Part shown: positions 6,794 through 46,070 of the stretch, in pieces | Layout of the letters: each line of letters opens with the position of its first letter | Position numbering within the stretch: the stretch's first letter is position 1 | Made by a program: the position numbers and the translations under genes | Source of the DNA: Elusimicrobiota bacterium | Lineage (GTDB): Bacteria; Elusimicrobiota; Elusimicrobia; UBA1565; UBA9628 | Direction of reading: 5' to 3' | DNA: 46,074 nt | NCBI GenBank assembly: GCA_016212825.1 | Contig: JACRDS010000139.1 | Span: 1-46,074 of the forward strand | The notes under the pieces: model-generated | What the model was told of the DNA's origin: nothing | Seen by the model: only the letters and a program-made list of their open reading frames with translations | The model's database searches: none

Positions 6794-7384
6794 GTGGCCG
6801 ACAGCGCAACCAAGGGACTCAGCCTCGACATCGACACCGGCGTCTACAGCATGGACGCCGTCCAAGCGGCCGCCTACACCTTCACCGACCGGGCCTACGT
6901 GCGCATCACGCGCCGGGGCGCCAAGGGGGTCAGCGTTTCCCTCCAGCCCAAGGCCAAGGATGCCGACGCCCAGGCGCTGGCCGGGGAATTCCACAACGAG
7001 CTCCTCCATGAGACCCTCCGGCGCAAGGTCTCGGACTCCAACAAGAAGATCCGCGAGTTCATCGTGACCAAGGCCCTGGTCTCGGCCCAGGTCCCCAGCG
7101 CGCCCCCGCCGGCGGCGGCGCCGGCCGAGGAGTGCCCCGAATGCGCGGCCGAAGCCCGCGCCGCGCAGGAGAAGAAGGGCGCGGCTCCCCAGGCCCAGCC
7201 CGCGGCGGTGGACCCCGACCTGGAGAAGGAGATCGAGAAGCTCCTGACCGAGATCGAGAAATCCGGCCCCGGCGGCAGCGACCCGCTGGGAGTGGCCGTG
7301 CCCTGGGAGAAGAAGTTCGGTGCCAAAGGCGCCGCCAAAGGCAAAACCAAGGACGCGTCCCAGAAGAAGGGGAAGAAGGCGTGA
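6794..7384 (+). CDS. hxsD: HxsD-like protein of a His-Xaa-Ser system, with extra C-terminal domain
   Basis: Residues 1-98 match the pattern I know for HxsD (His-Xaa-Ser system): a YSMDAVQAAAYTFTDRAYV block (18-36), then a short beta segment, EFHNELLHETLRRKV and IREFIVTKAL. HxsD accompanies the rSAM maturases HxsB and HxsC and may act as precursor-recognition or partner protein. The protein is 196 aa, about twice the usual length. The extension has an Ala/Pro linker, a CPEC motif (a possible metal or redox site), a charged helix DLEKEIEKLLTEIEK and a Lys-rich tail. The GTG start has a strong AAGGAGG ten bases upstream. The stop overlaps the next start (GTGA). Confidence 0.75.
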   Translation: MADSATKGLSLDIDTGVYSMDAVQAAAYTFTDRAYVRITRRGAKGVSVSLQPKAKDADAQALAGEFHNELLHETLRRKVSDSNKKIREFIVTKALVSAQVPSAPPPAAAPAEECPECAAEARAAQEKKGAAPQAQPAAVDPDLEKEIEKLLTEIEKSGPGGSDPLGVAVPWEKKFGAKGAAKGKTKDASQKKGKKA

Positions 7385-8856
7385 CGAACAAGGCCGCCGC
7401 CGTCCTGGACCCCGCGCAGTTCGACCCCGTCCAGACCGGGTTCTTCCGGTTCCGCAAGCTGGGCAAGCGCTTCCTAGTCACCAACGATTTCGGCCGGTAC
7501 TGCTTCATGGACGACGAGGTCTTCCAGAAGTTCGTGGCCGGCAAGCTCGACAAGGAGTCCGACCTCTACGGCCGCTTGGCCCGCGACGGTTTCATCCGGG
7601 ATCACATGGACTTCGACGCCCAGGTGGCCGGCTGGCGGAGCCGCCACGCCTTCCTCTGGCAGGGCCCCAGCCTGCACGTGGTGGTGGTGACCCTGCGCTG
7701 CAACCACCGCTGCCTCTACTGCCAGACCACCGCCGAGTCCATGGCCGGCCGCGAGACGGATATGCGCCAGGAGACGGCCAAGAAGGTCGTGGACCGCATC
7801 TTCGAGAGCACCAGCCCGGCCATCACCATCGAGTTCCAGGGCGGCGAGCCTCTGGTGAACTGGCCGGTGGTCAAGTTCATCGTGGAGTACGCCCGCAAGA
7901 AGAACCGCAAGGCCAAGAAGCACCTCTGGATCAACCTGGTCTCCAACCTGACGCTGATGGACGACGCCAAGTTCAAGTTCCTCTTCGACAACCAGGTCAA
8001 CTTCTGCACGTCCCTCGACGGCCCGGCCGATCTCCACGACAAGAACCGCGTGTTCGCCGGGGGCAGCAGCCACGCCCAGACCGTCAAGTGGTTCAGGAAG
8101 ATCTACCAGAAGACCCTGCGCAAGATGTTCCGCATCGAGGCCCTGCTGACCGTGACGCGCTTCTCCCTGACCCGTCACAAGGACATCGTGGATGAATACG
8201 TCAAGCTCGGCTGCCGCGGCGTCTTCATGCGCAGCCTCAGCCCGCTGGGCCTGGCGCGCGAGGTCTGGGACAAGATCGGCTACACGGCGGACGAATTCCT
8301 GGACTTCTACCGCAAGGCCTTCGACTATGTCCTGGAGGTCAACAAGAAGAAGCCCTTCTTCGAGCAGAACGCGCGCATCTTCCTGACCAAGATCATGACC
8401 GACACGGACCCGAACTTCCTGGACATCCGCTCCCCCTGCGGGGCGGGCATCGGACAGGTGGCCTACAACTTCGACGGCGGCGTCTACGCCTGCGACGAGG
8501 GCCGCATGCTCTCGCGCATGGGCGACGAGACCTTCCGGCTCGGCCACGTCGCGAAGGATGGCTATCAGGCGACCGTCGGCCACCCCGTCATCAAGGCCAT
8601 CTCCGTGGCCTCCTGCCTGGACAACCAGGTCTCCTGCTCGCGCTGCGCCTACAAGCCCTACTGCGGGGTCTGCCCGGTGCACTGCTACGCCGAGCAGGGG
8701 GACATCATGGGGCGCATGCCGTCGAGCACCCTCTGCAAGATCCACATGGGCATCCTGGACCACCTTTTCGAGAAGCTGGACGATGAGAAGAACGAACGCG
8801 TCTTCCGCAAGTGGATCAAGCAGGCGTCGGATCGGACTTCGTACCAGAGGAAATAG
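7381..8856 (+). CDS. hxsB: HxsB-like radical SAM/SPASM maturase
   Basis: The 491-aa protein has an N-terminal region with FRFRKLGKRFLVTND (22-36), seen in HxsB maturases. The rSAM motif is CNHRCLYC (C107, C111, C114) and GGEP follows as QGGEPLV. The C-terminal SPASM region has Cys at 353, 371 and 412, then the CSRCAYKPYCGVC segment and a final LCK, enough for two auxiliary [4Fe-4S] clusters. HxsB enzymes are thought to modify a His-Xaa-Ser repeat peptide; the reaction is not known to me. It sits directly between the HxsD-like gene and the Ser-His repeat gene, overlapping the former by four bases (GTGA). Confidence 0.85.
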   Translation: MTNKAAAVLDPAQFDPVQTGFFRFRKLGKRFLVTNDFGRYCFMDDEVFQKFVAGKLDKESDLYGRLARDGFIRDHMDFDAQVAGWRSRHAFLWQGPSLHVVVVTLRCNHRCLYCQTTAESMAGRETDMRQETAKKVVDRIFESTSPAITIEFQGGEPLVNWPVVKFIVEYARKKNRKAKKHLWINLVSNLTLMDDAKFKFLFDNQVNFCTSLDGPADLHDKNRVFAGGSSHAQTVKWFRKIYQKTLRKMFRIEALLTVTRFSLTRHKDIVDEYVKLGCRGVFMRSLSPLGLAREVWDKIGYTADEFLDFYRKAFDYVLEVNKKKPFFEQNARIFLTKIMTDTDPNFLDIRSPCGAGIGQVAYNFDGGVYACDEGRMLSRMGDETFRLGHVAKDGYQATVGHPVIKAISVASCLDNQVSCSRCAYKPYCGVCPVHCYAEQGDIMGRMPSSTLCKIHMGILDHLFEKLDDEKNERVFRKWIKQASDRTSYQRK

Positions 8857-8870: not shown

Positions 8871-9374
8871 ATGGGCAAAGGCAAGGAGATCGTCCCGAAG
8901 ATCAAGAAGGATATATCCCGGTTCCTGACCAGCGAGGAAGGCAAGATCCTCAAGAAGGACGTGGTCAAGGCCGCCGCGGTGCTGGGCATCGTGGGCGCGG
9001 CCATGATGCGCGCCGAGGACCTGCTGGCCCAGGTGGAGCACACCAACGCCCTGCACAACTCCGGGGCCAGCCAGCCCTCGCACGTGAGCCACTCCTCGCA
9101 CGCCAGCCACTCCTCGCACGGCAGCCACGGCTCGCACGGCTCCCACGGCTCGCACGGCTCCCACGGCTCGCACGGCTCCCACGGCTCGCACGGCAGCCAC
9201 GGCTCCCACGGCTCGCACGGCTCCCACGGCTCCCACGGCTCCCACGGCTCCCACGGCAGCCACGCCTCGCACGGCAGCCACGGCTCGCATGGCTCCCACG
9301 GCTCGCACGGCTCCCACGGCTCGCACGGCAGCCATGGCTCGCACGGCAGCCATGGCTCCCATGGGCAATGGTGA
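8871..9374 (+). CDS. Ser-His repeat precursor peptide (HxsA-like)
   Basis: The 167-aa protein has a leader-like N-terminus (1-69) that is helical and charged, with Lys/Glu-rich [15 protein letters not shown] and a hydrophobic [13 protein letters not shown]. Residues 70-164 are then a pure Ser-His-Xaa repeat: His every third residue from 71 to 164, 32 Ser-His pairs, Xaa mostly Gly with Val, Ser or Ala at a few early positions and one Ala in the middle. It ends GQW. His-Xaa-Ser repeat proteins are the presumed substrates of HxsB/HxsC. The ATG at 8871 was chosen because an upstream in-frame ATG at 8811 lies inside the maturase gene. An alternative role is metal binding, as in His-rich nickel chaperones. 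Confidence 0.85.
9078..9362 (+). repeat. 9-bp codon repeat encoding 32 Ser-His units
   Basis: The unit is Gly-Ser-His. Gly is almost always GGC and His nearly always CAC, but Ser alternates among TCG, TCC and AGC without a regular order. The DNA repeat is therefore imperfect while the protein repeat is perfect. Confidence 0.9.
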
Positions 9375-11061
9375 GCTCCGAGAAGGAACCCGCAGAGCAG
9401 TCTTCCTGACTCGGCCGCACTCCGCGAGAGCCCTCTCCCGCGGCCCCCGCGCCCTGTCGCCGCCGGGAACCGGGAAGGTCCTGCTGTTCCGCAACGACCT
9501 CGACCCCGCCGGCCGGACCACGGCTGGCGCGTCCTGGCACCAGGCGACCCTCTACCTCGCCTCCGCCCTGCGGGCCGCGGGCGTCCCGGTGGTCCTCTCG
9601 CGCCTGAGCCTCTCTCGGCTCGATGAGACAGGGCCCCGCGGCTTAGCCGGCCTGGGGCGCCTGCTTCGGGACCAGCCGGACATCAGCTTCGTGGGCCTGA
9701 CCCTCTACGATTCGGTCTTCGAACCGGCCCGCCGGCTGCTGCGCTTCCTGGCGTCCCGGACCGACGCCTGGCTCGCGGTGGGCGGCACCATGCCCACGCT
9801 GGCCCCCCAGGAGGTCTTCGTCCATCTCCCCGCGGCCCACTTCGTGGTCCGGGGCGCCGGAGAGGAAGTCCTGCCCCGGCTCCTGGGGATCCTGGGCGCC
9901 GCCGGCGCCCGGGCGGGACTGCGCCCGGCCCAGCGCCGGGCCCTGGCCGGCCTGCAGGGCATCCTGTTCGCCGACCGGGACGGGATCATCACGGCCGGAG
10001 CGGACCGCGTCCTGCGCGTGACGGACCTCGACCGGTCCCGCCTCGACTTCTCCCTGCTGGAGAAGGGGGACGTGGCCGCGGGCCAGTTCTGGTCCCTGTC
10101 GCGAGGCTGCCGCGGCGGCTGCCGCTTCTGCAGCTCCTGGGACAAGGGCCGGTTCGCCGGCAAGAGCCCGCAGGACTTCGCCGCGCTCCTCTCCGCCTAC
10201 GGCCGCCGCCTGCGCGAGCTCTATGGCCGCTGGGCCAAGGTCCCGCCCGCGGCCTTCGGGATCGGATTCTACGACGACGACTTCCTCGCGGACCGGGACC
10301 GGGCCCTGGCCCTGCTGCGCCTGCTGGAGCGCTCCCCCTTCTTCGCGCGCTTCCTGCAGACCGGCGTGAACTCCTTCTTCCGGCGGGGCGCCCTGGACGA
10401 GGGGCTGCTCGCGGCCCTGCGCCCCGCGGTCTTCCTGCCCAAGGTGGGGGATGAGCGCGCCGCGGCCCGCATGGGGCCCTGGCTCTACATCGGCACGGAG
10501 AGCTTCTGCGGCGCGGAGCTCGCGCGCCTGGGCAAGGGCTACGGGGCGCAGCGGGTGGAGGCTGCCGCCCGGGAGCTCTCCCGCCGCGGGATCCGGCAGA
10601 GCCACCACTTCATCGTCGCCAACGCGCGCACCACGCTGGAGGACCTGCTGGAGAGCCTAGTCCGCATCGTGCGGCTTCGGCAGCTCTGCGGCGAGCCCTT
10701 CGCGGTCCTGGAGCCCGTCTCGCAGCTGCGCTCCTTCTACCCCACGGCCAGCTACCGCGGCCTGGCGCGCGACGGCCTGCTGTCCCGCCTGGAGCTGCGC
10801 GGCACGCTGCGCCTGGCGGGCTTCCCGCGCTTCGACTATCCCCTCGTGGAGAAGGACGTCCCCGCGGACCCGGAGGTGCGGCGGTTCTGCGCGCGCCTGG
10901 CCGGCCGCACCGGCATCGACTGGAAGGCGGAGCTGGAAGGCCTGCTCCTGGAGACGCTCATCCTCTCGGAGCGGCTGCGGCGCGCCGCGCCCGCCCGGGC
11001 CGCGCGCCTGCGCGCGGCCGCGGACCGCTTCCGCCGCTACCACGAGCTGGCGGAGGCCTGA
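9361..11061 (+). CDS. Cobalamin-binding-type radical SAM protein
   Basis: The predicted 566-aa protein has an N-terminal Rossmann-like region typical of B12-binding rSAM enzymes ([19 protein letters not shown], then [12 protein letters not shown]). The rSAM motif CRGGCRFC follows (C250, C254, C257). The region after it ([24 protein letters not shown]) fits class B/oxygen-independent coproporphyrinogen oxidase-like rSAM folds. B12-rSAM enzymes usually methylate or rearrange unactivated carbons. The ATG at 9361 overlaps the end of the repeat gene by 14 bases and the stop overlaps the next ATG (TGATG), so it is translationally coupled on both sides. A classical DXHXXG cobalamin motif is not visible, so B12 binding is an inference. 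Confidence 0.75.
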
Positions 11062-12059
11062 TGGCGCTGGGCAACCCCAAGGGCAACATCCAGCTCTTCG
11101 TGACGCGGCGCTGCCAGCTGCGCTGCGCCTACTGCCCCGTGCGCAAGGCCGACGCGGACATGAGCCCCAGGACCGCCCGGCTCGGCGTGGACTTCCTCAT
11201 GCGCCACCGCAGCCCCCGGCTGCGCCTGGACTTCGGGGGCGGGGAGCCCCTGCTCAACTTCCCCGTGGTCCGGGAGGCGGCGGACTACGCGGCCCGCCGC
11301 GCCCGCGCCTTGGGCAAGGACCTCTCCTTCTACATGGTGACCAACGCCGTGGCGCTCGACGACGAGGCGCTCGACTGGCTGGTCCGCCGCCGCGTGCTCC
11401 TGGAGCTGTCCTTGGACGGCCGGCGGCCGGACCACAACCGCCACAAGCCGGCGCTGGAGCCGGGGCTGGACCCCTACGCGGCCACCCGGCGCGGACTGGA
11501 GCGGGCCCTGGCCGCCGGGGCCGACTTCTTCGTCATCGCGGTGGCCAGCCCCGCCGACGTGCGGCGCCTGGCCGACAATTTCGAGCACCTCTACAGCCTG
11601 GGGGCGCGTTCCTTCGACCTCAGCTATGCCCTGGGCTCCTGCTGGGGCCGCGAGGACCAGGAGGCCTTCTTCGACCAGGCCGGGCGCATCATCCGGCGGC
11701 ACCGGCGGGCCCTGGCGCGCGGCGAGCTGCGCCTGGGCAACCTCTCCCAGCGCAACGAGCCGACCGTGCTCAGCTCCGAGCTGATGGTGGACACGGACGG
11801 CTCACTGCACCTGCTCAGCGAGTGGATGTTCGAGAGCTCCGGACCGTCCCGGCCCGCGCCCTACCAGTGGGGCAAGGTCCAGGACGGGACGGACATCAAC
11901 GCCGTCTATTGGAGCCGCTTCCACTGCTATTATACTTTGGTGAGGATGTACGAGGACCAGCCCGCGGTCCGCCGGGCCGTGCTCAACAACATCGACTTCG
12001 GCCGCCGCGTGGGCCGGTTCTTCGCCGCCCTGGGAGAGGAGGTCCATGGCCGCGCCTAG
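11061..12059 (+). CDS. Short radical SAM protein, paralog family A
   Basis: The 332-aa protein has the rSAM motif CQLRCAYC (C18, C22, C25), GGGEPLL and a ribose-binding-type region. It lacks the C-terminal Cys cluster of SPASM enzymes. Shared features define a paralog family with the genes at 12046, 15400, 20534 and 24139 (minus): an EP-x-LSxEL-x-VDTDG stretch, and a C-terminal LNN-[LI]-x-x-G. The reaction is unknown; without auxiliary clusters, methylation or epimerisation are unlikely guesses and none should be assumed. Overlaps the previous gene by one base and the next by 14. Confidence 0.85.
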   Translation: MALGNPKGNIQLFVTRRCQLRCAYCPVRKADADMSPRTARLGVDFLMRHRSPRLRLDFGGGEPLLNFPVVREAADYAARRARALGKDLSFYMVTNAVALDDEALDWLVRRRVLLELSLDGRRPDHNRHKPALEPGLDPYAATRRGLERALAAGADFFVIAVASPADVRRLADNFEHLYSLGARSFDLSYALGSCWGREDQEAFFDQAGRIIRRHRRALARGELRLGNLSQRNEPTVLSSELMVDTDGSLHLLSEWMFESSGPSRPAPYQWGKVQDGTDINAVYWSRFHCYYTLVRMYEDQPAVRRAVLNNIDFGRRVGRFFAALGEEVHGRA

Positions 12060-13236
12060 GACCCTGCTCCAGGACGCCGAAGCCGCCCTCGGCCAGGGCG
12101 GCTTCGGCGAGGCCCGCGGCCGGCTCGATGAGCTCGACCGGTCCGTGCTCCTGCGGCTCTCCCGCGACGACTCCCGCCTGGAGCAGCTGCGCCCCTATGT
12201 CTTCTACCGCCGCGCCCTGCTGGCCCGCCTGCGCGCGCGCGGCGTGCGCGTCGGGCCGGAGCTGCTGCGCGCCCTCTTCGCGGCGGGCAGCCCGCGGCTC
12301 ATCCTGCTCGTGACCCACGCCTGCCAACTGCGCTGCGCCTACTGCCGGGTGCGCCGCTACCCGGGTCGGATGAGCCCGCAGACCGCCGAGGCCGGCATCC
12401 GCTGGCTGCTGGGCGGACTGCGCCGGGAGGTGGAGCTGCAGTTCTTCGGCGGCGAGCCCCTGCTCGCCTTCGACGTGGTGCGCCGTGCCGCGTCCCTGGC
12501 CGCGCGCCTGGCCGCGCGCGCGGGCAAGACCGCGCGCTTCCTGCTCACCACCAACGGCCTCTCCTTGCCCGACGCGGCCCTGGACTTCTTCCGCGAGCAA
12601 GGCTTCCGCCTGGAGTTCAGCTGCGACGGAGACTACTCCACCCAGCTGCGCCAGCGCCGCGCGGCCGGCGGCCGCGACTACTACGCGCGCCTGGCGCGCA
12701 ACCTCGAGCGCCTCCGCGGCGCCGGGGTCGACTACCAGGTCATCGCGGTGCTGACCCCGGAGAACGTCGGCCGCGTCGAGGAGGAGTTCCGCTACCTGGC
12801 GGGTCTGGGGCACCGCCGCATCCAGCTCAACTACGCTCTGGGCCGCTTCTGGAACGCGCGGCAGGAGGCGGCGCTCTTCGCGGGCATGCGCCGGGTCTCC
12901 GAACTGGCCGGCGAGCTGGGAGTGGAGTTCATCAACAGCAGCAGCCAGCGTCGCGAGCCCGTGGTCCTCAACTCCGAGCTGACCGTGGACTGTGACGGGG
13001 AGGTCTTCCGGGAGACCGGGGTCTGCCTGGAGGAGGACTTCCGCGGCATGAAATCCCGATTCCTCGTGACCCGGCTCGGGGACGCCGGGCTCTTCGACGC
13101 GCACGCCTCGACCCAGTTCGACAACCTGGCCCTGCTCGTCGGCGCCTACGGCCGCGGCCGCCTGCGCCGCATCCTGCTCAACAACCTGGACCTGGGCCTG
13201 CGCTTCGACCGCCGGCCGCCCTGGGAGGACGCGTGA
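12046..13236 (+). CDS. Short radical SAM protein, paralog family A, with N-terminal extension
   Basis: The 396-aa protein carries about 75 extra N-terminal residues before the rSAM core; the motif CQLRCAYC is at C93, C97 and C100, followed by FFGGEPLL. The family A signatures are present as EPVVLNSELTVDCDG and LLNNLDLG. The extension begins MAAPRTLLQDAEAALGQGGF and looks helical; it has no family assignment. A strong site, GGGAGAGGAGG, precedes the ATG inside the end of the upstream gene. The last residues overlap the next gene as GTGA. Confidence 0.85.
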   Translation: MAAPRTLLQDAEAALGQGGFGEARGRLDELDRSVLLRLSRDDSRLEQLRPYVFYRRALLARLRARGVRVGPELLRALFAAGSPRLILLVTHACQLRCAYCRVRRYPGRMSPQTAEAGIRWLLGGLRREVELQFFGGEPLLAFDVVRRAASLAARLAARAGKTARFLLTTNGLSLPDAALDFFREQGFRLEFSCDGDYSTQLRQRRAAGGRDYYARLARNLERLRGAGVDYQVIAVLTPENVGRVEEEFRYLAGLGHRRIQLNYALGRFWNARQEAALFAGMRRVSELAGELGVEFINSSSQRREPVVLNSELTVDCDGEVFRETGVCLEEDFRGMKSRFLVTRLGDAGLFDAHASTQFDNLALLVGAYGRGRLRRILLNNLDLGLRFDRRPPWEDA

Positions 13237-15416
13237 GGGTCTGCCTCATCAACCCGCCCGACCCGGACCCGCCGCCCGCCTATTTCGGGCCGCCCTACGG
13301 GCTCTCCCTGCTCGGCGGCCTCCTGGAGCGCGCGGGCCACGAGGTGCGCGGGCGCGACCTCTCCCGCTGGACGCGCGAGGCGGCGCTGGCGGCCCTGCCG
13401 CGCCTGCTGGGGCGACGCGCCCCGCAGCTGGTGGGCATCTCCTGCCAGAGCTCCAGCCGCTGGTCCGCGCTGGCCCTGGCCGACGAAGCCAAGCGGCTGG
13501 CCCCGGAGGCGGCCGTGGTGGTGGGCGGCCCCTTCCCCACCGTGGCTCCGGAATTCGTGCTGGAGCGCTGCCGCGCCGACTTCGCCGCCATCGGGGACGG
13601 CGAGGAGACCCTGCTGGAGCTCGCCGAGGGCCGCGCCCCGGCCGCGGTGCGCGGGCTGGCCTATCGGCGGGACAAGGCCGTGCGGCGCAGCCCGGTCCGG
13701 GGTCCGTTCCTGGACCTGGACTCCCTGCCCTTCCCCGCCTTCCATCTCTTCGACGCGGAACGGGAGCTGGAGCGCCTTCGCCGGCCCTCGGCCGAGGCCA
13801 TGGCCGCCCCCCTCTCCGCGGCCGGCCGGCGCTGCGTGGCCGTGGACAGCGCCCTCATGGTCCTGGGCTCGCGGGGCTGCGTGTACCGCTGCGTCTTCTG
13901 CCCCATGAGCCATTCCCGGGCCCCGGTGCGCCGGCACTCCCCGCGCTATGTCGCGGATCTGGTCGGGCATCTCCACCGGGTCTACGGCCGGCGCCGCCTG
14001 GTCTTCGGCGACAACTACTTCACCTTGGACCGGGACTGGGCCCGGGAGGTCTGCGCCCGGCTCGCGGCCCGGCGCCCCCGGCCCGACTGGATCTGCATGA
14101 CCCGCCCCGACGCCGTGGACCCGGACCTGCTGCGGCGCCTGGCGCGGGCCGGCTGCCGCGAGATCTCCTACGGCCTGGAGTCCGGCTCGCCCGAGGTCCA
14201 GCGACGCACCGGCAAGAGGATGCGCCTGGAGCGCGTGGGCCCCGCCTTCGCCGCGACCAAGGCGGCCGGCATCGCCCCGGTCCTGATGCTCATGGTCGGC
14301 AACCCCGGTGAGAGCCGGGAGACCCTGCGCCAGACCGCGGCCTTCTGCCGGCCCTTGGAGCCGGACCGGGTCCAGGTGCACCCGGCCAGGGTCTATCCGG
14401 GGACCCGGCTCCACGACATCGCGGACCGCGAAGGGATCATCCCGGAGGACTTCTACGACCGCGACGATCCGCACGCCCCGCCCTACACGGGGGAGCACAG
14501 CCTCCCGGAGCTGGCGCGCCTCCAGGCCCTGCTCCAGCCGCGCACGGTCTACCTCGCGGCCGGAGCCGGCTGCGTCAACGGCTGCTGCGAACTGCACCGG
14601 CCGCAACGGCAGGTCGCGGCCCCGCGCCTGCAGCAGCTCCTGGCCCTGGCCTCCCTGCGCGCCGACCGCACGGTGCTGGGCGGAGGCGAGCCCTTCCTGC
14701 GCCAAGACCTGCATTCCTTGCTGGAGGCCGGCCGCCGGATCCAGATGCACGGGCTGCGCTTCTACACCACGGCCCGGCCCCTGGCCGGCCGGGACTGCCG
14801 GCCCCTGCTCCGCGGGGACCTGGCGCGAGGCATCGTGGTCCCCCTGTTCTCCCCCAAGCCCGCGGCGCACGACCGGCGCGCGGCCGTGCCCGGCGCCCTG
14901 CTGCAGACCCGCCTGGGCATGCTGCGCTGGCGCAAGGCCGACGGCCTGGTGCAGGCCTGGGCCCACCTCGACCGGGACAACGTCGAGGACCTGCCCGGCT
15001 GGCTGGACTGGCTCGCGGAGAGCGGCGCGACCGAGGCGGCCTTCCTGTACGGAGGCTCGCCGGCCGGCTGGGGCGGGCTGCCCTGGAAGGAACTGCCCAA
15101 GATGTCCCTGGCGGCGCAGGCCCTCCAGAAGGCCCTGCCCAGGGCCCGGCGCCTGGGGCTGTCCATCTCGGTCTTCGGCATCCCGGAATGCCTGGCCCGC
15201 GCCGAGGACCTCCCGAAGGAGGAGTCCTGCCGCCCCTTCGACGAGCTGCTGCCGGCCTCGGGCGAGCCCCTGGCGCTGGGCGCCCTGCGCCGCCGGGGGC
15301 TCAAGGCCCAGATGCCCGTCTGCCGCAAATGCCGGCGCCGGGAGCTCTGCGAGGGCGCCTGGAAAAGCTATCTTGAGATCCATGGAGACGAGGAGTTCCG
15401 TGCCATCGCCGCTTAG
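13233..15416 (+). CDS. B12-binding radical SAM fused to a cluster-less second rSAM-like domain
   Basis: The 727-aa protein begins like B12-dependent rSAM enzymes (MRVCLINPP, FGPPYGLSLLGGLLERAGHEV, VVVGGPFPTVAPE). The rSAM motif CVYRCVFC (C216, C220, C223) and a TGK-M-x9-AG-type helix in the 300s belong to the first half. From about 435 a second rSAM-like barrel begins, with GGGEPFLRQ and a C-terminal CRKCRRRELC, but its cluster motif reads C447-VNG-C451-C452, so the third ligand of CxxxCxxC is missing. This half resembles the rSAM parts of the genes at 21451 and 28278. It could be a substrate-binding scaffold for the first half. Confidence 0.8.
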   Translation: MRVCLINPPDPDPPPAYFGPPYGLSLLGGLLERAGHEVRGRDLSRWTREAALAALPRLLGRRAPQLVGISCQSSSRWSALALADEAKRLAPEAAVVVGGPFPTVAPEFVLERCRADFAAIGDGEETLLELAEGRAPAAVRGLAYRRDKAVRRSPVRGPFLDLDSLPFPAFHLFDAERELERLRRPSAEAMAAPLSAAGRRCVAVDSALMVLGSRGCVYRCVFCPMSHSRAPVRRHSPRYVADLVGHLHRVYGRRRLVFGDNYFTLDRDWAREVCARLAARRPRPDWICMTRPDAVDPDLLRRLARAGCREISYGLESGSPEVQRRTGKRMRLERVGPAFAATKAAGIAPVLMLMVGNPGESRETLRQTAAFCRPLEPDRVQVHPARVYPGTRLHDIADREGIIPEDFYDRDDPHAPPYTGEHSLPELARLQALLQPRTVYLAAGAGCVNGCCELHRPQRQVAAPRLQQLLALASLRADRTVLGGGEPFLRQDLHSLLEAGRRIQMHGLRFYTTARPLAGRDCRPLLRGDLARGIVVPLFSPKPAAHDRRAAVPGALLQTRLGMLRWRKADGLVQAWAHLDRDNVEDLPGWLDWLAESGATEAAFLYGGSPAGWGGLPWKELPKMSLAAQALQKALPRARRLGLSISVFGIPECLARAEDLPKEESCRPFDELLPASGEPLALGALRRRGLKAQMPVCRKCRRRELCEGAWKSYLEIHGDEEFRAIAA

Positions 15417-16365
15417 GCCGCTGAACCTGGACCTGCTGCTCACCAGGGCCTGTCCCTTGTCCTGCGGCTACTGCCGCATGGAGCACCGGTCCGGCCCGAC
15501 GCCCGCCCGGGTCTGGCGCCGGACCCTGCGCCTGCTGCTCCAGGAGGAAGGCCCGCTGGAGCTGCATCTCATGGGCGGCGAGCCGCTCGTGGAATACGGG
15601 CTCGTGCGCCAGGTCGCCGGCGAGGCCCTGGCCCAGGCCTTCCGGAAACGCCGGGAGCTGCGCCTGATCGTGACCACCAACGGCCTGCTCCTGACGCCGC
15701 AGCGCTCCCGGGAGTTGGCCCGGCTGGGAGCCTGGGTGATGCTGAGCCTCGACGGCGGCCGGGAGGTCCAGGAGCGGCAGCGGCCCCTGCCGGGGCGGGG
15801 CTCCTGGAGCGTGCTGCGGCGCAACCTCAAAGGCCTGGTCGAAGCCGGCACCCCCTTCTTCGTGAACCTGGTGGTCACGCCGGCCACGGCGGCGAGCCTC
15901 TCCCGGAGCACGGCCTTCCTGCTGCGCCAGGGGGTGCGCGCCTTCCAGGTCGCCTACGCCCTGGGGGTCCGCTGGGACGAAGCCAGCCTGCGGACCCTGG
16001 AGCGCCAGCTCGTCCTGGTCTGCCGGCAGGCGGACGCGGCCCGGCCGCGCGCCGAGCTCTTCAACCGCCGCAACGGAGCCGAGCCCGTGCTCCTGAGCCC
16101 CCAGCACGTGGTGGATACCGACGGCCGGCTCTACGTGGGCACCTCCATCGTGCTCGAAGGGCTCTGGCCCGGCCTGCACGCGGCCTTCCGCGCGGGGCAC
16201 GTCGCGAGTCTCGCGCGCCTTCCCGGCCGGGGCGTCGGGCCGGCCGAGCAGCTGCGCCGGCTGCGCCGGGCCCCGCTCCCCGCGCCGGAGCGCCGGGTCC
16301 TGCTCAACAACCTGGCGGTCGGCCAGCGGCTGCGCCGCTTCTGGCGGCGGCAGGAGGAGCCATGA
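15400..16365 (+). CDS. Short radical SAM protein, paralog family A
   Basis: From the GTG at 15400 the protein has 321 aa, with the rSAM motif CPLSCGYC (C18, C22, C25), MGGEPLVE, TTNGLLL, VDTDG and a C-terminal LLNNLAVG. The GTG was preferred over an ATG at 15382 because a GAGGAG site sits just upstream and because it places the first cluster Cys at residue 18, exactly as in the paralogs at 11061 and 20534. It overlaps the previous gene by 17 bases and the next by four (ATGA). Confidence 0.85.
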   Translation: MPSPLRPLNLDLLLTRACPLSCGYCRMEHRSGPTPARVWRRTLRLLLQEEGPLELHLMGGEPLVEYGLVRQVAGEALAQAFRKRRELRLIVTTNGLLLTPQRSRELARLGAWVMLSLDGGREVQERQRPLPGRGSWSVLRRNLKGLVEAGTPFFVNLVVTPATAASLSRSTAFLLRQGVRAFQVAYALGVRWDEASLRTLERQLVLVCRQADAARPRAELFNRRNGAEPVLLSPQHVVDTDGRLYVGTSIVLEGLWPGLHAAFRAGHVASLARLPGRGVGPAEQLRRLRRAPLPAPERRVLLNNLAVGQRLRRFWRRQEEP

Positions 16366-17498
16366 GCCCCCGGGGCGAAGCGGTGGACCGCCGCCGCCTC
16401 AAGGAGCGCCTGACCGAGCTGGGCGTGGACCCGCGCGACCCTCTGCGCGGAGGCGCCCTGGGCGAGGTCTACCTCATGCTCACCATGCGCTGCAACCTGC
16501 GCTGCCGCGCCTGCACCCTCTGGGGGGTGGGCGGCGCCTGCCAGGACCCCCGCTACCACGCGGCCATCTCCCGGCCCGCGCCGCGCGCGGCCTTCTCCAG
16601 GCTCCTCGACCAGCTGGTCCCCTACCGGCCCCGCTACGTGAACTTCTCCGGCGGCGAGCCGCTCCTGAGCTCCCTGTGCCTGCCCCTGGCCGCCAAAGCC
16701 AAGAACCTGGGCCTGCCCACCATCCTCACCACCAACGGCGTCTACATCGAGCGCTTCGCCGACCGGGTGGCGGAGTGCTTCGACCAGCTCAACATCTCGG
16801 TGGCCTGCCCCCCGGCCCTGCGCGAGAAGCTGCGCATGGGCCCGCCCGGACATTACGAGGCCATGGTGCGAGGCCTGCGCGGCCTGATGCGCCGCCGGCA
16901 TCGCCCGCTGCTGCGCCTGCTCTGCGAGGTCTTCGACTCCAACGCGGAGCATCTGGGCGAGCTCGTGGAGCACCTGAAGGGCAAGGGCATCGTGTTCGAC
17001 GAGATCCTCTTCCAGCACCTCATCTTCAACCCGCCCGAGGTCCTGGCCGCGCAGGAGCGGACCTTCCGGGAGGAGTTCGGCCTGCCCCTGGGCATGTGGC
17101 GGGGCTACGGCTACCGCCCGCGGGCCATGGATTTCGCGGCCTTCGACCGGGCCCTGCGCAAGCTGCGCCGACGCTATCCGGAGGCCCGCTTCAGCTTCGA
17201 GCTCAAGGGCGCGCAGGCCGCGCGCGACTACTACGAGGGCCGCCGGCGGAGGCTCGGCGCGGCTTTCTGCGACGGGCCCTGGACCCAGGTCCACGTCCTG
17301 CCCAACGGCGACGTCTGGACCTGCCCGGACTACATCCTGGGCAACATCGCCCGGGACCGCTTCGCCGGGATCTGGGACGGGAAGAAGGCCCGGGCCCTGC
17401 GCCGCCGGGTCATGACGCGCCTGTTCCCGGCCTGCCGCGGCTGCTTCCTGTTCTACGGCAAGGAGCAGCCCCTGGGCCTGGAGGAAGGAGGTCGGTGA
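16362..17498 (+). CDS. Radical SAM/SPASM-type protein
   Basis: The 378-aa protein has the rSAM motif CNLRCRAC (C44, C48, C51), SGGEPLL, TTNGVYI and a C-terminal SPASM-like tail with FCDGPWTQVHVLPNGDVWTC, GNIARDRF and a final CRGC. The tail resembles the auxiliary-cluster region of peptide-modifying and dehydrogenating rSAM enzymes. It differs clearly from the family A paralogs around it. Its TGA overlaps the ATG of the next gene (TGATG) and a GAGGAAGGAGG site lies at its 3' end. Confidence 0.85.
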   Translation: MSPRGEAVDRRRLKERLTELGVDPRDPLRGGALGEVYLMLTMRCNLRCRACTLWGVGGACQDPRYHAAISRPAPRAAFSRLLDQLVPYRPRYVNFSGGEPLLSSLCLPLAAKAKNLGLPTILTTNGVYIERFADRVAECFDQLNISVACPPALREKLRMGPPGHYEAMVRGLRGLMRRRHRPLLRLLCEVFDSNAEHLGELVEHLKGKGIVFDEILFQHLIFNPPEVLAAQERTFREEFGLPLGMWRGYGYRPRAMDFAAFDRALRKLRRRYPEARFSFELKGAQAARDYYEGRRRRLGAAFCDGPWTQVHVLPNGDVWTCPDYILGNIARDRFAGIWDGKKARALRRRVMTRLFPACRGCFLFYGKEQPLGLEEGGR

Positions 17499-24139: not shown

Positions 24140-24144
24140 CTCCA

Positions 24145-33539: not shown

Positions 33540-33553
33540 GTCTCCGGGACTCC

Positions 33554-33583
33554 TTGTCCGGTCCCCCGCCCTTATGGAATAAT
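33554..33583 (+). promoter_or_regulatory. Promoter of the rSAM/PP-loop gene pair, probably leaderless
   Basis: TTGTCC (33554-33559), an 18-bp spacer and AATAAT (33578-33583) precede the ATG at 33590 by six bases. The promoter faces away from the one at 33511-33539. Confidence 0.5.
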
Positions 33584-33589
33584 GGCTTG

Positions 33590-37377: not shown

Positions 37378-39222
37378 TCAGCCCAGGATCTGCGCCCGGC
37401 GCCCCATCCAGACCGGGTTGAGGTAGGGCTCGGGGCGGCGGATGCCCTTGGCCAGCTCCAGCCCGGCGAGCAGGACCGCGCGCATCCGGGCGGGGCTCAG
37501 GACGCCGCCCTCCGGCAGGCCGAGCCTCCGACGCAGGAAGCGGGTCATCCGCGGCGGGATCGCGGCGAAATCGGCCGCCATGCCGGCCTCGTCTCCCAGC
37601 GCCTGCCGGACCAGCGCCCGGTTGCAGTAGGCCCAGGCGTAGTTCCCGTCGAGGGCCACGGCGCGGTCGAGGTCGCGCCGCGCCTCGGCATGCCGGCCCA
37701 GCAGCCTGCGGGCCTCGCCCCGCCACACGTAGGCCTCCAGGTCCTGGGGGTCCCGCGCGACGGCGCGGTCCAGGTCGGCCAAGGCCGCGCGGACGTCTCC
37801 GAGCCTGAGACGGGCCGCGCCGCGCCAGCAGTCGACCCAGGTCCGCGCGCCGAGGCCGCTGGCCTGCCGGAACTTCTCCAGAGCCGCGCGGTAGCGCCCC
37901 AGCCAGAGCAGCGCCTCGCCGTGCCAGGTCAGGACCGACTGCCGCGCCACGAGGTCGGGCGTGCGCCCGGCCTGCGCGAACTCCCGCAGGCCCGCGGCCC
38001 TGTCGCCCTGAGCCAGAAGGGATTCCCCCAGACGGCACTGGAACCACCAGTACTCCGGGACCTCCCTCAGGACGGCCCGGCAGATCGCGTCGCTCTCGGC
38101 GAACCTCCCGGCCATCATCAGATGCGCGACGAAGGGGTGGTGCAGGCAGGCGTAGCGCCTCATGGGCAGGCGCCGGATGCTCTCATACTCGGCCCGCGCC
38201 TGGCGGTCGCGGGCCAGGCTGATGGCGAGGACCCCGCGGCAGTAGGCGCGCCAGTGAGGGTGCGTGCCGGCGCCGCGCAGGCGGCCGAGCTCCCGACGGC
38301 AGAAGCTTTCCTTCTCCCGGCCCAGGCGGGGAGACACCCCGTACCACCAGGGCCACAGGAAGGAGTTGGCGTACGCCATCTGCGCGGACCTGCCGAGCAT
38401 GGCCTCGCCCAGCCGGAAGGCCTCGTCGTGGGAGCCGGCGCAGAGCAGGGCCGAGAAGACCTCCGGCCACTCGGGGCGGACCTCCGGGGCGGCCGCGGCC
38501 GCGGCCGCGGCCCGCCGGAAGGCCGTCCGCGCCGCTCCGGGCCGGCCGGAGCGGTCCAAGGCCCGGGCCAGCTCCAGCTGCGCCGGGAGGGAGCCCGGCT
38601 CCGCCTGGGCCGCCCGACGCAGTTGCGTCTCGGAGGAGCCGCCGCGGCCCCGCGCGGCGAGGACCTGCCCCAGGAGCAGGCGCGCCTCGCCCGGGGGGCC
38701 GCCGAGCTCCAGGGCGCGCCACAGCAGCCTCTCGGCCCCGACGAGCCGGCCCGTCTTGATGAGCACCCGGGCCAGGCCGATGACAGGCAGGGCCGAGTCC
38801 GGCCGGGCCGCGACGGCCTTCCGGAACTCCTGGCCGGCCCTGACGCAGCGCCCCAGCTTCTCGCTGAGGCGCCCCAGGCCAAGATGGATCTCGAAGACCG
38901 GGCCGGCGCGCCGGCGCGCGGCCCGCAGCTGGGTCTGCGCCTCTTCGAGCCGCCCCCGCATCTCCAGGAACCGGGCATACTCCATCTCCGGCTCCCCGCG
39001 GGAGTCCGGCGCGCCCAGGACCTGGCGGAACGCCCGCTCCGCATCCGCGAAGCGCGCCAGCTTCTCCTCGATGCGGCCTTTCCAGATGTAGGCTTCCCAC
39101 CGACAGGCGCCGGCCCCGGCCAGCCGCCGGAGCTCGGCGGCCGCCTCCGGGAGGCGGCCGGCCCGCACCAGAGGCCGCAGGGCCTCGAAGAGGCCGCTGC
39201 CGGCCGCAGGCCGGGCGCTCAC
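37378..39222 (-). CDS. Tetratricopeptide repeat protein
   Basis: The 614-aa protein is made of TPR-like repeats, clearest at the C-terminus (for example ARTWVDCWRGAARLRLGDVR and LEAYVWRGEARRLLGRHAEA). The central part is less regular (about 260-400), with a WPWWYGVSP stretch. It has no signal peptide and is probably a cytosolic or peripheral scaffold. The GTG at 39222 overlaps the upstream stop as GTGA. A longer reading frame continues upstream but lies antisense-frame to the SGNH gene and was not used. It is last in a three-gene minus-strand operon. Confidence 0.8.
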   Translation of the reverse strand: MSARPAAGSGLFEALRPLVRAGRLPEAAAELRRLAGAGACRWEAYIWKGRIEEKLARFADAERAFRQVLGAPDSRGEPEMEYARFLEMRGRLEEAQTQLRAARRRAGPVFEIHLGLGRLSEKLGRCVRAGQEFRKAVAARPDSALPVIGLARVLIKTGRLVGAERLLWRALELGGPPGEARLLLGQVLAARGRGGSSETQLRRAAQAEPGSLPAQLELARALDRSGRPGAARTAFRRAAAAAAAAPEVRPEWPEVFSALLCAGSHDEAFRLGEAMLGRSAQMAYANSFLWPWWYGVSPRLGREKESFCRRELGRLRGAGTHPHWRAYCRGVLAISLARDRQARAEYESIRRLPMRRYACLHHPFVAHLMMAGRFAESDAICRAVLREVPEYWWFQCRLGESLLAQGDRAAGLREFAQAGRTPDLVARQSVLTWHGEALLWLGRYRAALEKFRQASGLGARTWVDCWRGAARLRLGDVRAALADLDRAVARDPQDLEAYVWRGEARRLLGRHAEARRDLDRAVALDGNYAWAYCNRALVRQALGDEAGMAADFAAIPPRMTRFLRRRLGLPEGGVLSPARMRAVLLAGLELAKGIRRPEPYLNPVWMGRRAQILG

Positions 39223-42066: not shown

Positions 42067-42103
42067 TAGGATGTCGTTCCGGCGGGCACCCCCCATGCGA
42101 AGA

Positions 42104-42964
42104 ATGGAACGGATCGCGCTGTTCGGGAAGGGCGGAGGAGGCAAGTCCACCATCGCCAGCAACATCAGCTACCTGTACGCCAAGAGCGGCCTGCGCGTGC
42201 TCCACGTGGGCTGCGATCCGAAGCGCGACTCGACGCTCCGCCTGCTTGGTCGCCGCGCCCGCACCAGCATCGCGGACGTCCCCTTCCCGGGAGACCCGCT
42301 CCAGGCCATCGAACGCTCCGCGGACGGCATCGACTGCGTGGAGACCGGCGGGCCGGTCCCCGGCATAGGCTGCGCGGGACGCGGCATCATCATGGCCATG
42401 GAGCAGTTCGAGCGCCTCCGCCTGCTCGAGCAGGACCGCTACGACGCGGTGGTCTTCGACGTCCTCGGGGACCTCGTCTGCGGCGGGTTCGCCGCCCCCC
42501 TGCGCAACGGCTTCGTGCGGAAGGTGGCGGTCGTGCTCTCCGACGAGCCCATGTCGCTCTTCGCGGCCAACAACCTCGCGCGCATGGTCCGCACGCACGC
42601 CGGCGGCGGCGTCGCCCTCGCGGGGCTCATCGGCAACTGCCGCTATGACGCCGATGCGGCGCGGAGCGTCCTGGAGGGCTTCGCGGCGCGCCTCGGCACG
42701 GAGCTGCTGGCCAGCTTCGGGGCCGAACCCCTGGTGCGCCGCGCAGAGCGCGCCTGCCAGACGGTCTCCCGGTTCGCGCCGAAGTCCGAGGTCTCCGGCC
42801 AGTTCGCCCGGCTGGCCACGACACTGCGGGACCTCGACGCATCCGTCCTGCCCCTGCCCACGCCGCTCGATGACGCGGCCCTGGACATGTTCCTGCGGGA
42901 CGGCGCCGACTCGCCCGCTGCGCCGCGGAGGAACCCAACACGCCCCAGACGCCCCGGGAAGTGA
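42104..42964 (+). CDS. NifH-like ATPase (nitrogenase Fe-protein family)
   Basis: The 286-aa protein has the P-loop GKGGGGKST (8-16), GCDPKRDST (37-44; NifH has GCDPKADST), GCAGRG (C90, R93) and FDVLGDLVCGGFAAPLR (C126). C90 and C126 match the two [4Fe-4S] ligands of NifH (Cys97 and Cys132 of A. vinelandii), and R93 matches Arg100. This family gives ATP-driven, low-potential one-electron transfer (NifH, BchL, BchX, CfbC). The GCAGRG version is the NifH-like one, unlike BchL. It is the only such gene in the window for three component-1-like sets. Start 42104 fits the family N-terminus; in-frame ATGs at 42071 and 42095 are alternatives. Coupled to the next gene as GTGA. Confidence 0.9.
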   Translation: MERIALFGKGGGGKSTIASNISYLYAKSGLRVLHVGCDPKRDSTLRLLGRRARTSIADVPFPGDPLQAIERSADGIDCVETGGPVPGIGCAGRGIIMAMEQFERLRLLEQDRYDAVVFDVLGDLVCGGFAAPLRNGFVRKVAVVLSDEPMSLFAANNLARMVRTHAGGGVALAGLIGNCRYDADAARSVLEGFAARLGTELLASFGAEPLVRRAERACQTVSRFAPKSEVSGQFARLATTLRDLDASVLPLPTPLDDAALDMFLRDGADSPAAPRRNPTRPRRPGK

Positions 42965-44772: not shown

Positions 44773-46070
44773 AGGCGCTGGACTGCCGGGCCGTGTTCAA
44801 CCAGCCCTACTCCGTCGGGGTCGAGCTCGCGGTCAACGCGGTGACCGACGCCTACCTGCTGCTCGACGCCCCGACATGCTCGCTGTATCGGGCCGGGTAC
44901 ATCCAGGGCAGCCATGACTCGACCTCGACGCTCTGGGACAGCGAGGGCGCCCACCGGGTCCAGATCTCGTCGACCATGACCGAGAAGATCGTCTCGGGGA
45001 ACCTGCCGGACCTCGCTCTGCGGCTGGGCCGGCTGGCGGCGGCCCCGGGCTGCGGCGCGGTCCTGGCTGCGGGCTTCCCCATGGCCAGGATCGCGGGTAC
45101 CCCCTACCAGACGATCTGGGACAGCCTAGCGCCGCGGCCGAAGGTCCCCTTCTTCCCGGTCCTGGGGGGGACGATCTCCGACGACTGGCTCGACGGCTAC
45201 GCCCACACTTTGCTGGCCCTGGCCAAAGGGCTTCCCCTGCCGAAGGCCGCCCGCCGGCGCACGGACGTCGCCATCGTGGGCTACATGCACGACCGCGGCG
45301 AGCACGACCATGTCGCGAACCTCGCCGAGCTGCGGCGTATGCTGGCGGCCATCGGACTCAACCTGGTCTCGGTCTGGCCGAACGGGGCCCCTTTGGCGGA
45401 CCTGCGCGCCGCGGCGGGTGCGGGCGCGATCCTCTCGTTCCCCTACGCGCGCGACGCCGCGGCCCGCCTGGCCGGGCGCCTGGGGGTGCCGCTGGTTGAA
45501 TGCGGCCTGCCGCTCGGCCTGGGGGCCTCGGCGGACTGGCTCGCGCAGGTGGGGACCGCGCTGGGCCGCGGGGCCCGGGCGGAGGCCTTCGCCAGGAAGG
45601 AGCGCGCCCGCCTCCTGCCCCGGCTTGAGTGGGCGGTAGAGGAGCTGTTCCTGCACTCCGAATTCATCTTCGGCGGCGACCCGGTGCTCCTTCGGCCCCT
45701 GGCGCGCCAGCTCTCGGAGCTCGGCGGGCGCCTGCGCGCGGCCTTCGTCATGGCGGGCGCCCATCACCGCCGGGAGTTCGGGGCCTGGGACGACCTGCCG
45801 TTCCCGGTATACGAGGCCCCGAGCGAGGACCGCCGCGCCGAGCTCCTGCGCGGCATGCACGCCGCTGACGGCCCTCCCGATTGCCAGATCGGCGTTCAGC
45901 CCTGGGAGCGCGACGATAAGTTCTGGAGGCGCGCGGTCGAGCTCGGCTTCCCCTCCTACCACAGCCACGCCTTCCACGACCGCCCATACCTCGGGTTCGA
46001 AGGCGCCCTGTGCCTGCTCAGCCGCATCGCAGAAGAGCTCCTCTGGTCGAGACGACTGCGGCGCGGCTAG
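44769..46070 (+). CDS. Nitrogenase component-1-like protein, beta (NifK/BchB-like) type, copy 3 (divergent)
   Basis: The 433-aa protein keeps DAPTC (Cys37) but has Ala106 in GFPMARIAG where copies 1 and 2 have the second ligand Cys. YMHDRGEHDHVANLAELRRML, FGGDPVLLRPLARQLSELGG and PYLGFEGALCLLSRIAEEL preserve the family layout. With three Cys in its alpha partner this gives a 3+1 ligand set. In DPOR the cluster has three BchN Cys and one BchB Asp; here Cys37 would take the Asp place. GTG start overlapping the previous stop. The window ends four bases after its stop. Confidence 0.8.
   Translation: MKALDCRAVFNQPYSVGVELAVNAVTDAYLLLDAPTCSLYRAGYIQGSHDSTSTLWDSEGAHRVQISSTMTEKIVSGNLPDLALRLGRLAAAPGCGAVLAAGFPMARIAGTPYQTIWDSLAPRPKVPFFPVLGGTISDDWLDGYAHTLLALAKGLPLPKAARRRTDVAIVGYMHDRGEHDHVANLAELRRMLAAIGLNLVSVWPNGAPLADLRAAAGAGAILSFPYARDAAARLAGRLGVPLVECGLPLGLGASADWLAQVGTALGRGARAEAFARKERARLLPRLEWAVEELFLHSEFIFGGDPVLLRPLARQLSELGGRLRAAFVMAGAHHRREFGAWDDLPFPVYEAPSEDRRAELLRGMHAADGPPDCQIGVQPWERDDKFWRRAVELGFPSYHSHAFHDRPYLGFEGALCLLSRIAEELLWSRRLRRG

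What the first reader, a model, noticed from the sequence alone, without database searches (positions are those of the whole stretch)
6794..46070. Nitrogenase-like reductases, twelve radical SAM genes and an Hxs precursor cassette in one locus
The sequence shows one NifH-like gene, three alpha-type and three beta-type component-1-like genes (one truncated), twelve genes with an intact CxxxCxxC motif, two or three with B12-type N-termini, and a carbamoyltransferase and a PP-loop enzyme. From memory, nitrogenase paralogs near rSAM genes have been reported in Elusimicrobia and suspected to act on a tetrapyrrole. The Ser-His repeat precursor cassette at the head of the main operon has not, to my knowledge, been linked to that system. 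Inference: either the reductase acts in the maturation of a peptide product, or the peptide supplies metal or acts as a carrier.
Basis: partly seen in the sequence, partly recalled or inferred. Interest (0 to 1): 0.95.

Follow-up and report, generated by a model that had tools for sequence, protein, structure and literature searches.

The report
Nitrogenase-like reductases in peptide maturation
In uncultured Elusimicrobia, and more loosely in myxobacteria, genes for nitrogenase-like reductases occur together with the maturation genes of a Ser-His repeat peptide, so these reductases likely help to remodel a peptide chemically rather than fix nitrogen or, as has been proposed, reduce a tetrapyrrole.

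Summary
The contig carries HxsD, HxsB and an HxsA4 precursor with 32 Ser-His-Xaa units, all over their NCBIfam cut-offs; twelve genes with CxxxCxxC; one NifH-like, three NifD-like and four NifK-like genes (one short). HxsD-HxsB-HxsA4, eight more radical SAM genes and one D/K pair form a 13-gene unit with no gap above 17 bp.

In Elusimicrobiota, 45 of 46 genomes with the K-like gene have HxsB, against 46 of 294 without it; 19 of 45 have both within 20 kb. In 188 evenly drawn genomes of a myxobacterial phylum it is 27 of 28 against 39 of 160, but there the two are rarely on one contig. The converse fails: at least half of HxsB genomes have no such reductase. The reductase looks like an accessory of the Hxs pathway.

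The published idea, tetrapyrrole reduction, is weakened: 16 of 46 carriers, some 98-100% complete, lack both HemB and HemC. NifB is over its cut-off in 0 of 46; so is HxsC, hence Hxs-like, not canonical Hxs. I infer an ATP-driven reductase acting on the peptide or a group on it. The substrate is not shown.

The parts
6794..7384 (+). HxsD
   Evidence: TIGR03976 63.2 bits, cut-off 50
7381..8856 (+). HxsB, radical SAM maturase
   Evidence: TIGR03978 531.8 bits, cut-off 370; CNHRCLYC
8871..9374 (+). HxsA4 precursor: leader with hydrophobic segment, then 32 SHx units (27 SHG), end GQW
   Evidence: NF038313 138.1 bits, cut-off 55; counts; leader recurs in relatives
9352..11061 (+). B12-binding radical SAM enzyme (start uncertain)
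   Evidence: PF02310 34.3 bits; PF04055 25.7 bits, just below its cut-off of 29.5; CRGGCRFC
11061..12059 (+). short radical SAM gene R1, PapB-like N-terminal half
   Evidence: PF04055; NF047865 117.8 bits, below cut-off 340
12046..13236 (+). short radical SAM gene R2, PapB-like
   Evidence: PF04055; NF047865 111.9 bits, below cut-off
13233..15416 (+). B12-binding radical SAM enzyme with a C-terminal HxsC-like half
   Evidence: PF02310 and PF04055; TIGR03977 33.3 bits at 447-654, below cut-off
15382..16365 (+). short radical SAM gene R3, PapB-like
   Evidence: PF04055; NF047865 98 bits, below cut-off
16362..17498 (+). radical SAM/SPASM protein
   Evidence: PF04055 and PF13186
17498..19231 (+). 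NifD-like subunit D1
   Evidence: PF00148 46.9 bits; family profile best hits 9d9u_A and NifE
19224..20531 (+). NifK-like subunit K1
   Evidence: PF00148 131.2 bits; family profile best hit NifK 1mio_B; model pLDDT 91.7
20534..21433 (+). short radical SAM gene R4
   Evidence: PF04055 39.1 bits
21451..23121 (+). HxsC4-like radical SAM protein, last gene of the 13-gene unit
   Evidence: PF04055 57.9 bits; NF038332 57 bits, cut-off 500
23255..24145 (-). short radical SAM gene R5, PapB-like (start uncertain)
   Evidence: NF047865 37.5 bits, below cut-off; CPARCGFC
24200..25543 (+). NifK-like subunit K2
   Evidence: PF00148 116.9 bits
25536..27305 (+). NifD-like subunit D2
   Evidence: PF00148 66.4 bits
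27289..28281 (+). short NifK-like subunit KT, without the DGPxC motif
   Evidence: PF00148 95.4 bits; three relatives with a similarly shortened region
28278..31613 (+). fusion: N-terminal domain, ferredoxin, NodU-type carbamoyltransferase, HxsC4-like radical SAM
   Evidence: PF16861 227 bits, PF02543 110 bits, PF13237 33 bits; NF038332 59.2 bits at 809-993, below cut-off
33521..35653 (+). HxsC4-like radical SAM protein with long C-terminal part
   Evidence: PF04055 63.9 bits; NF038332 56.9 bits, below cut-off
35650..37371 (+). DUF6395 protein with SGGxDS (PP-loop-like) motif
   Evidence: PF19932 86.4 bits; motif read
37378..39222 (-). TPR protein; relatives lie near K-like genes in other loci
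   Evidence: TPR models; neighbours
42071..42964 (+). NifH-like reductase with P-loop GKGGGGKS and cysteines in GIGCAGRGI and GDLVCGGF
   Evidence: PF00142 224 bits; NifH chains of the PDB up to 189 bits
42961..44772 (+). NifD-like subunit D3
   Evidence: PF00148 50.5 bits
44769..46070 (+). NifK-like subunit K3, ends at the contig end
   Evidence: PF00148 112.2 bits

Best explanation
This is a peptide-maturation locus of an Hxs-like type in which nitrogenase-like reductases likely act as tailoring enzymes on the Ser-His-Gly repeat peptide, or on a group carried by it. Shown: the gene families, the shared 13-gene unit, and the nesting of the reductase inside the set of HxsB genomes in two phyla. 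Inferred: HxsB, with HxsD as recognition partner, and the HxsC-like, PapB-like and B12-dependent radical SAM enzymes modify the repeats of HxsA4 while the leader stays attached. Then the NifH-like protein spends ATP to pass single electrons to a D/K complex, which reduces an intermediate on the peptide. The D/K complex is predicted to hold an iron-sulfur cluster and no NifB-type cofactor; on that point it would work like dark-operative protochlorophyllide reductase, not like nitrogenase. Several D/K pairs per genome would serve different sites or products. The hydrophobic, Ala-rich segment in the leader suggests export afterwards.
For: Hxs models over cut-off. One 13-gene unit from HxsD to the HxsC4-like gene that includes D1-K1.

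Co-occurrence, Elusimicrobiota: K-like at over 90 bits in 46 of 340 genomes; HxsB in 45 of these and in 46 of the other 294 (Fisher 2e-29). Second phylum: 27 of 28 against 39 of 160 (1.6e-13; without the five seed genomes 22 of 23 against 39 of 160). HxsB over cut-off in 16 of 18 genomes not titled Elusimicrobia that were reached through K-like loci. Nine Elusimicrobiota genomes have only weak hits of 29-40 bits, presumably other nitrogenase-family genes: HxsB in 0 of 9.

Location, Elusimicrobiota: same contig in 22 of 45 genomes, within 20 kb in 19 against 2.8 expected. Runs on one strand: HxsD-HxsB-HxsA-rSAM-NifH-D-K in L030; two rSAM genes between HxsA and NifH in L127 (K in two frames there); in L140 and L144 rSAM genes, a NifH:D fusion and K follow after about 1 kb without a match. 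In L165 (contig of L104, titled Deltaproteobacteria) HxsB, an (SHG)n precursor and a radical SAM gene face K-K-D-NifH about 2 kb on.

Cofactor: NifB over cut-off in 0 of 46. The one invariant Cys of the K-like family is C36; D-like has C250 invariant, C173 and C556 nearly so. NifH nucleotide and cluster motifs intact.
Against: No experiment, and no direct evidence that a D/K complex touches the peptide. In 23 of 45 Elusimicrobiota genomes HxsB/HxsA and K-like lie on different contigs. In the second phylum physical linkage is rare: by the places listed, 1 of 27 genomes has both on one contig (G361, about 124 kb apart); in the 18 genomes it is three (G341, G345, G347), and an (SHx)n precursor was found in one of the four loci fetched from these. 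Matches to the window's radical SAM genes are seen in 9 of 22 loci not titled Elusimicrobia (some contigs are short). K-like genomes without HxsB: G225 (97% complete), G511 and G357; G354 has only two parts. HxsC is over its cut-off in 0 of 46. Related genomes are not independent: inside family f1 the association holds (20 of 21 against 9 of 23, p=8e-5), in f8 it is not significant (23 of 23 against 31 of 36, p=0.075). The window's own genome has HemB and HemC, so a tetrapyrrole substrate is not excluded for it. D/K could act on a free small molecule later joined to the peptide.
Confidence: 0.5

Rival explanations
1. The reductase makes a tetrapyrrole-derived cofactor (the published proposal for 'group VI' nitrogenase homologs), and the His-rich Hxs peptide binds or carries that cofactor.
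For: View in print: 'putative tetrapyrrole cofactor biosynthesis genes' (PMC9391474, passages) and 'potentially involved in tetrapyrrole modification' (PMC11257099, passages). The relatives DPOR, COR and CfbCD act on tetrapyrroles (established knowledge). One B12 radical SAM protein has a weak BchE match of 48.5 bits, cut-off 481. HemB is present in 29 of 46 carriers, including all 22 of families f1 and f3.
Against: 17 of 46 carriers lack HemB and 16 of these also lack HemC; the 17th, G136, has a 24-bit HemC fragment. Thirteen of the 17 are at least 90% complete, five 98-100%. Salvage would be needed. No model of a tetrapyrrole reductase passes its cut-off.
Confidence: 0.2
2. The peptide serves the reductase: a His-rich metal store or metallochaperone that supplies or inserts metal.
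For: 34 His in 167 residues of the precursor, and shared runs of genes.
Against: Nesting runs the wrong way: 46 of 91 HxsB genomes in Elusimicrobiota and 39 of 66 in the second phylum have no such reductase. It also leaves the radical SAM trains in Hxs loci of reductase-free genomes (L079-L084) unexplained. The peptide could still serve the reductase in some genomes and other enzymes elsewhere.
Confidence: 0.1
3. The NifH-D-K complexes are an ATP-driven, low-potential electron source for the many radical SAM enzymes, not tailoring enzymes.
For: In the fetched Elusimicrobiota loci they often stand among radical SAM genes; the fusion gene at 28278-31613 carries ferredoxin motifs.
Against: At least half of the HxsB genomes do without it, and fetched Hxs loci of such genomes carry similar radical SAM trains (L079-L084). 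In 13 of 22 loci not titled Elusimicrobia no match to the window's radical SAM genes lies nearby. A generic electron donor would not need up to sixteen K-like matches in one genome (G354).
Confidence: 0.1
4. Two unrelated sets of genes share genomes and mobile biosynthetic islands; the link is historical or ecological.
For: Loci are mosaic, orders vary, and many copies lie on separate contigs; in the second phylum same-contig pairs are rare.
Against: Near-perfect one-way nesting in two phyla, overlapping genes in one unit, and HxsB in 0 of 9 genomes with only weak K-like hits.
Confidence: 0.1

Closest known systems
'Group VI' nitrogenase paralogs of Elusimicrobia (Meheust et al. 2020, ISME J; paper not held, known through passages of citing papers and recall)
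   Same: NifH homologs of Elusimicrobiota that are not for nitrogen fixation (PMC11257099, passage). Their place beside many radical SAM genes, and their presence in myxobacteria, are recalled.
   Different: No Hxs peptide cassette is mentioned in the passages seen; the tetrapyrrole proposal does not fit carriers without HemB and HemC.
Hxs (His-Xaa-Ser) peptide system, NCBIfam HxsA/B/C/D
   Same: HxsD, HxsB and an HxsA4 precursor over cut-off.
   Different: No HxsC over cut-off; trains of other radical SAM genes and nitrogenase-like reductases instead.
Dark-operative protochlorophyllide reductase (BchL/N/B) and Ni-sirohydrochlorin a,c-diamide reductase (CfbC/D)
   Same: NifH-type ATPase plus component-1-like partners, no NifB-type cofactor (for the known enzymes established knowledge).
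   Different: All scores far below cut-offs (BchB 34.3 of 490; CfbC 231 of 402).
Methylthio-alkane and isethionate reductases (MAR, NFL/Isr)
   Same: Nitrogenase-like complexes with other substrates than N2; the best solved relative of the D-like family is 9d9u_A/9fmg_A, 106 bits (that these are MAR is recalled). The isethionate enzyme has its own radical SAM partner (PMC11423573, passages).
   Different: Those act on small sulfur compounds with a single radical SAM partner (isethionate enzyme; MAR: recalled); here there are several D/K pairs, twelve radical SAM genes and a precursor peptide.

Membership tests
Hxs system | HxsB over cut-off (TIGR03978) | tested here: met
   531.8 against 370 bits
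Hxs system | HxsD over cut-off (TIGR03976) | tested here: met
   63.2 against 50 bits
Hxs system | HxsA-type His-Xaa-Ser precursor beside them | tested here: met
   NF038313 138.1 against 55 bits, 14 bp downstream of HxsB
Hxs system | HxsC over cut-off (TIGR03977) | tested here: not met
   best in window 55.4 of 267.9 bits; over cut-off in 0 of 46 genomes, though 46 of 46 have weaker relatives. Hence 'Hxs-like', not filed as canonical Hxs.
Nitrogenase (NifHDK) | NifH, NifD and NifK equivalog cut-offs | tested here: not met
   NifH 229 of 394; NifK 21 of 427; NifD 16 of 654 bits
Nitrogenase (NifHDK) | NifB for the cofactor core | tested here: not met
   over cut-off in 0 of 46 genomes; 8 of 46 have weak hits of at most 28.7 bits, cut-off 343.65
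DPOR/COR | BchL/N/B or BchX/Y/Z cut-offs | tested here: not met
   BchL 154 of 345, BchX 141 of 331, BchB 34 of 490, BchN 29 of 420, BchZ 33 of 529, BchY 26 of 425 bits
CfbCD | CfbC and CfbD cut-offs | tested here: not met
   CfbC 231 of 402; CfbD (methan_mark_13) 13.5 of 268 bits
Group VI nitrogenase paralogs | NifH placement in the published tree | not tested
   Paper and its alignment not held. Record titles of loci with K-like genes include Elusimicrobia GWA2_66_18 and Myxococcales.

The most novel reading that the evidence does not exclude
A whole branch of the nitrogenase superfamily ('group VI' and its myxobacterial kin) is a set of RiPP tailoring reductases: ATP-driven, NifB-independent enzymes whose substrate is a ribosomal peptide with Ser-His-Gly repeats already modified by radical SAM enzymes.
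Probability: 0.4. Interest if true: 0.95.

Novelty: new variant of a known kind. Interest (0 to 1): 0.86.

Why it matters
The function of this nitrogenase branch is not established; the proposal in print is a tetrapyrrole. Here it gains a concrete partner, a precursor peptide encoded beside it. That turns the open question into a co-expression and mass spectrometry experiment. If true, nitrogenase-type chemistry would reach ribosomal peptides; the literature searches made here listed no paper that says so. It also gives the Hxs peptides a chemical clue.

Tried and rejected
Tetrapyrrole reduction as the common function: weakened by HemB and HemC, not excluded. A nitrogenase-type cofactor: NifB not found over cut-off. 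Fusions of K-like genes with other domains, suspected from reading frames above 1000 codons: in the four such loci fetched (L161-L164) the extra length gave no match to window proteins beyond nitrogenase parts and looks spurious (only window proteins were compared). The 'truncated' K-like gene as a pseudogene: unlikely, since three relatives share a shortened region. The carbamoyltransferase fusion as an assembly error: unlikely, since the carbamoyltransferase part recurs at 62-65% identity in open frames of up to about 3.5 kb. Literature: the searches listed no paper on both Hxs and nitrogenase-like genes (one search listed 25 of 27 papers, one search listed 15 of 166); I saw passages of five papers and read none whole. 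Meheust 2020 could not be read, so a mention there is not excluded. Genome size as a confounder was not modelled. Handles G102-G160 were taken as family f8; a few of them were not listed with their family.


Full report
What is there. The window is a complete contig (C95) of a 3.56-Mb, 86%-complete genome. It begins inside a 16S rRNA gene and ends at a K-like gene. In one search, whose query was led by K1, every hit of 60% identity or more whose title gives a group is Elusimicrobia. From 6794 to 23121 thirteen genes run on one strand with overlaps or gaps of at most 17 bp: HxsD, HxsB, HxsA4, a B12 radical SAM gene, R1, R2, a second B12 radical SAM gene, R3, a radical SAM/SPASM gene, D1, K1, R4 and an HxsC4-like gene (the start of the first B12 gene is uncertain). 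Two further blocks have overlapping genes: K2-D2-KT-fusion (24200-31613) and NifH-D3-K3 (42071-46070).

Precursor. HxsA4 is 167 aa: a charged leader, a hydrophobic Ala-rich segment, then 32 SHx units (27 SHG) and GQW at the end. Relatives listed keep the leader pattern and end in QW, SY, SW, AW or tails with RGGWC. A second copy lies on contig C158 of the same genome, with no other match to window genes in the 20 kb fetched.

The reductase. The NifH-like protein keeps the P-loop and two cysteines in the NifH contexts. The component-1 genes are far below the equivalog cut-offs. With profiles of 30 and 28 sequences, the shorter partner hits NifK best (1mio_B, 78 bits) and the longer one 9d9u_A/9fmg_A and NifE (106 and 100 bits). 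The K-like family has one invariant Cys, C36, in a DGPxC-type motif. D-like has C250 invariant, aligned with the Cys of 'CPTAIIGDD' in 9d9u_A, and C173 and C556 nearly so. That such cysteines correspond to P-cluster ligands of nitrogenase is recalled. NifB is over its cut-off in 0 of 46 carriers. So a NifB-type cofactor is unlikely. In 28 matches, in 27 of the 65 loci (some loci overlap), NifH and D are in one frame; in the window they are separate.

Co-occurrence. In 340 genomes of the phylum, HxsA4 is found in 93 (79 over cut-off), HxsB in 91 and K-like in 56. Of the 56, 46 score over 90 bits. Nine score 29-40 bits and one (G232) is a 38-residue piece; these ten count as K-negative. HxsB is in 45 of 46 K-positive and 46 of 294 K-negative genomes. 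Of the nine weak ones none has HxsB; one of them, G297, has a weak HxsA4 match (E=8.8e-6). In a second phylum (that of G340, titled Myxococcales; 188 genomes drawn evenly), K-like is in 28 and HxsB in 66, shared by 27. The exceptions are G225 and G511, and among the 18 genomes G357 and, in part, G354, which has two HxsB pieces below the cut-off on two contigs. The converse does not hold: 46 of 91 and 39 of 66 HxsB genomes have no K-like gene. This one-way nesting is what an accessory reductase predicts and what a peptide that merely serves the reductase does not.

Location. In Elusimicrobiota 22 of 45 genomes have both on one contig; 19 within 20 kb (2.8 expected), 12 within 10 kb (1.5 expected) (gaps read; expectation for random placement from the match counts, which are lower bounds for HxsB; fragmentation ignored). 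Runs on one strand: L030, L127 (K in two frames there), L140 and L144 (with about 1 kb of no match after HxsA), and D-K before HxsD in L027. In the second group linkage is looser. Same-contig pairs occur in G341, G345 (two contigs) and G347 of the 18 genomes, but in the even sample only in G361, about 124 kb apart (1 of 27; places). In L159 K and HxsB converge almost directly, and in L165 HxsB, an (SHG)n precursor and a radical SAM gene face K-K-D-NifH. In the other three of these four loci no such repeat was found. Fetched Hxs loci of genomes without the reductase carry similar trains of radical SAM genes (L079-L084).

The published proposal. Two papers that cite Meheust 2020 call these genes tetrapyrrole cofactor or tetrapyrrole modification genes (PMC9391474 and PMC11257099, passages). 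HemB is found in 29 of 46 carriers and HemC in 30. Sixteen lack both. G136 lacks HemB and has a 24-bit piece of HemC. Among the 17 without HemB, 13 are at least 90% complete, with G119, G120 and G121 at 100%, G153 at 99% and G157 at 98%. All 22 carriers of families f1 and f3, the window's own genome included, have both. So de novo tetrapyrrole synthesis is not needed to keep the reductase, though salvage is not excluded.

Mechanism. I commit to reductive tailoring of the Hxs peptide or of a group on it, at 0.5. The order of steps, the bond reduced and export are inferred. That HxsD acts in leader recognition is also inferred; nothing here tests it.

Limits. No assay, no structure of a complex. 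The genomes are related, so P values overstate; within family f8 the test is not significant. Meheust 2020 could not be read.

Noticed in passing
L076:9959-10381 (G000:C158): A second HxsA4 precursor gene, 99% identical over the match to the window copy, with no other match to window genes in the 20 kb fetched.
   Followed up: partly
27289-28281: The short K-like gene is a recurring subtype: three relatives (L098, L031, L096) share a shortened region and lack the DGPxC motif (L096 has a Cys two positions on), so it may be a structural subunit beside K2-D2.
   Followed up: partly
28278-31613: Ferredoxin, NodU-type carbamoyltransferase and radical SAM domain fused in one frame; the carbamoyltransferase part recurs at 62-65% identity in other carriers (L038, L069, L072), in L038 about 1.6 kb from HxsD.
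   Followed up: partly
37378-39222: TPR protein whose relatives often follow a K-like gene, directly (L101, L107, L134) or after one radical SAM gene (L114, L160).
   Followed up: no
Family f8 genomes such as G119, G120, G121, G153, G157: Near-complete genomes without HemB and HemC, hence apparently without de novo tetrapyrrole synthesis, although G138, G150 and G152 of the same family (genus g45) have both.
   Followed up: partly
L130 genome (G354): Sixteen K-like matches in one genome titled Deltaproteobacteria; some are pieces.
   Followed up: no
L028 (G230:C57): HxsB lies in two overlapping frames (83% and 85% identity to the window protein), so it looks frameshifted or misassembled there; the cassette begins about 1.2 kb from a K-like gene.
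   Followed up: no
P0074: A NifH relative (52% identity) named from Nannocystaceae bacterium ST9 on a 6.98-Mb contig, a possible cultured host.
   Followed up: no
G000:C13 and G000:C50 (L074, L075): Three more strong NifH matches in the same genome, with K-like genes and radical SAM genes around them.
   Followed up: partly
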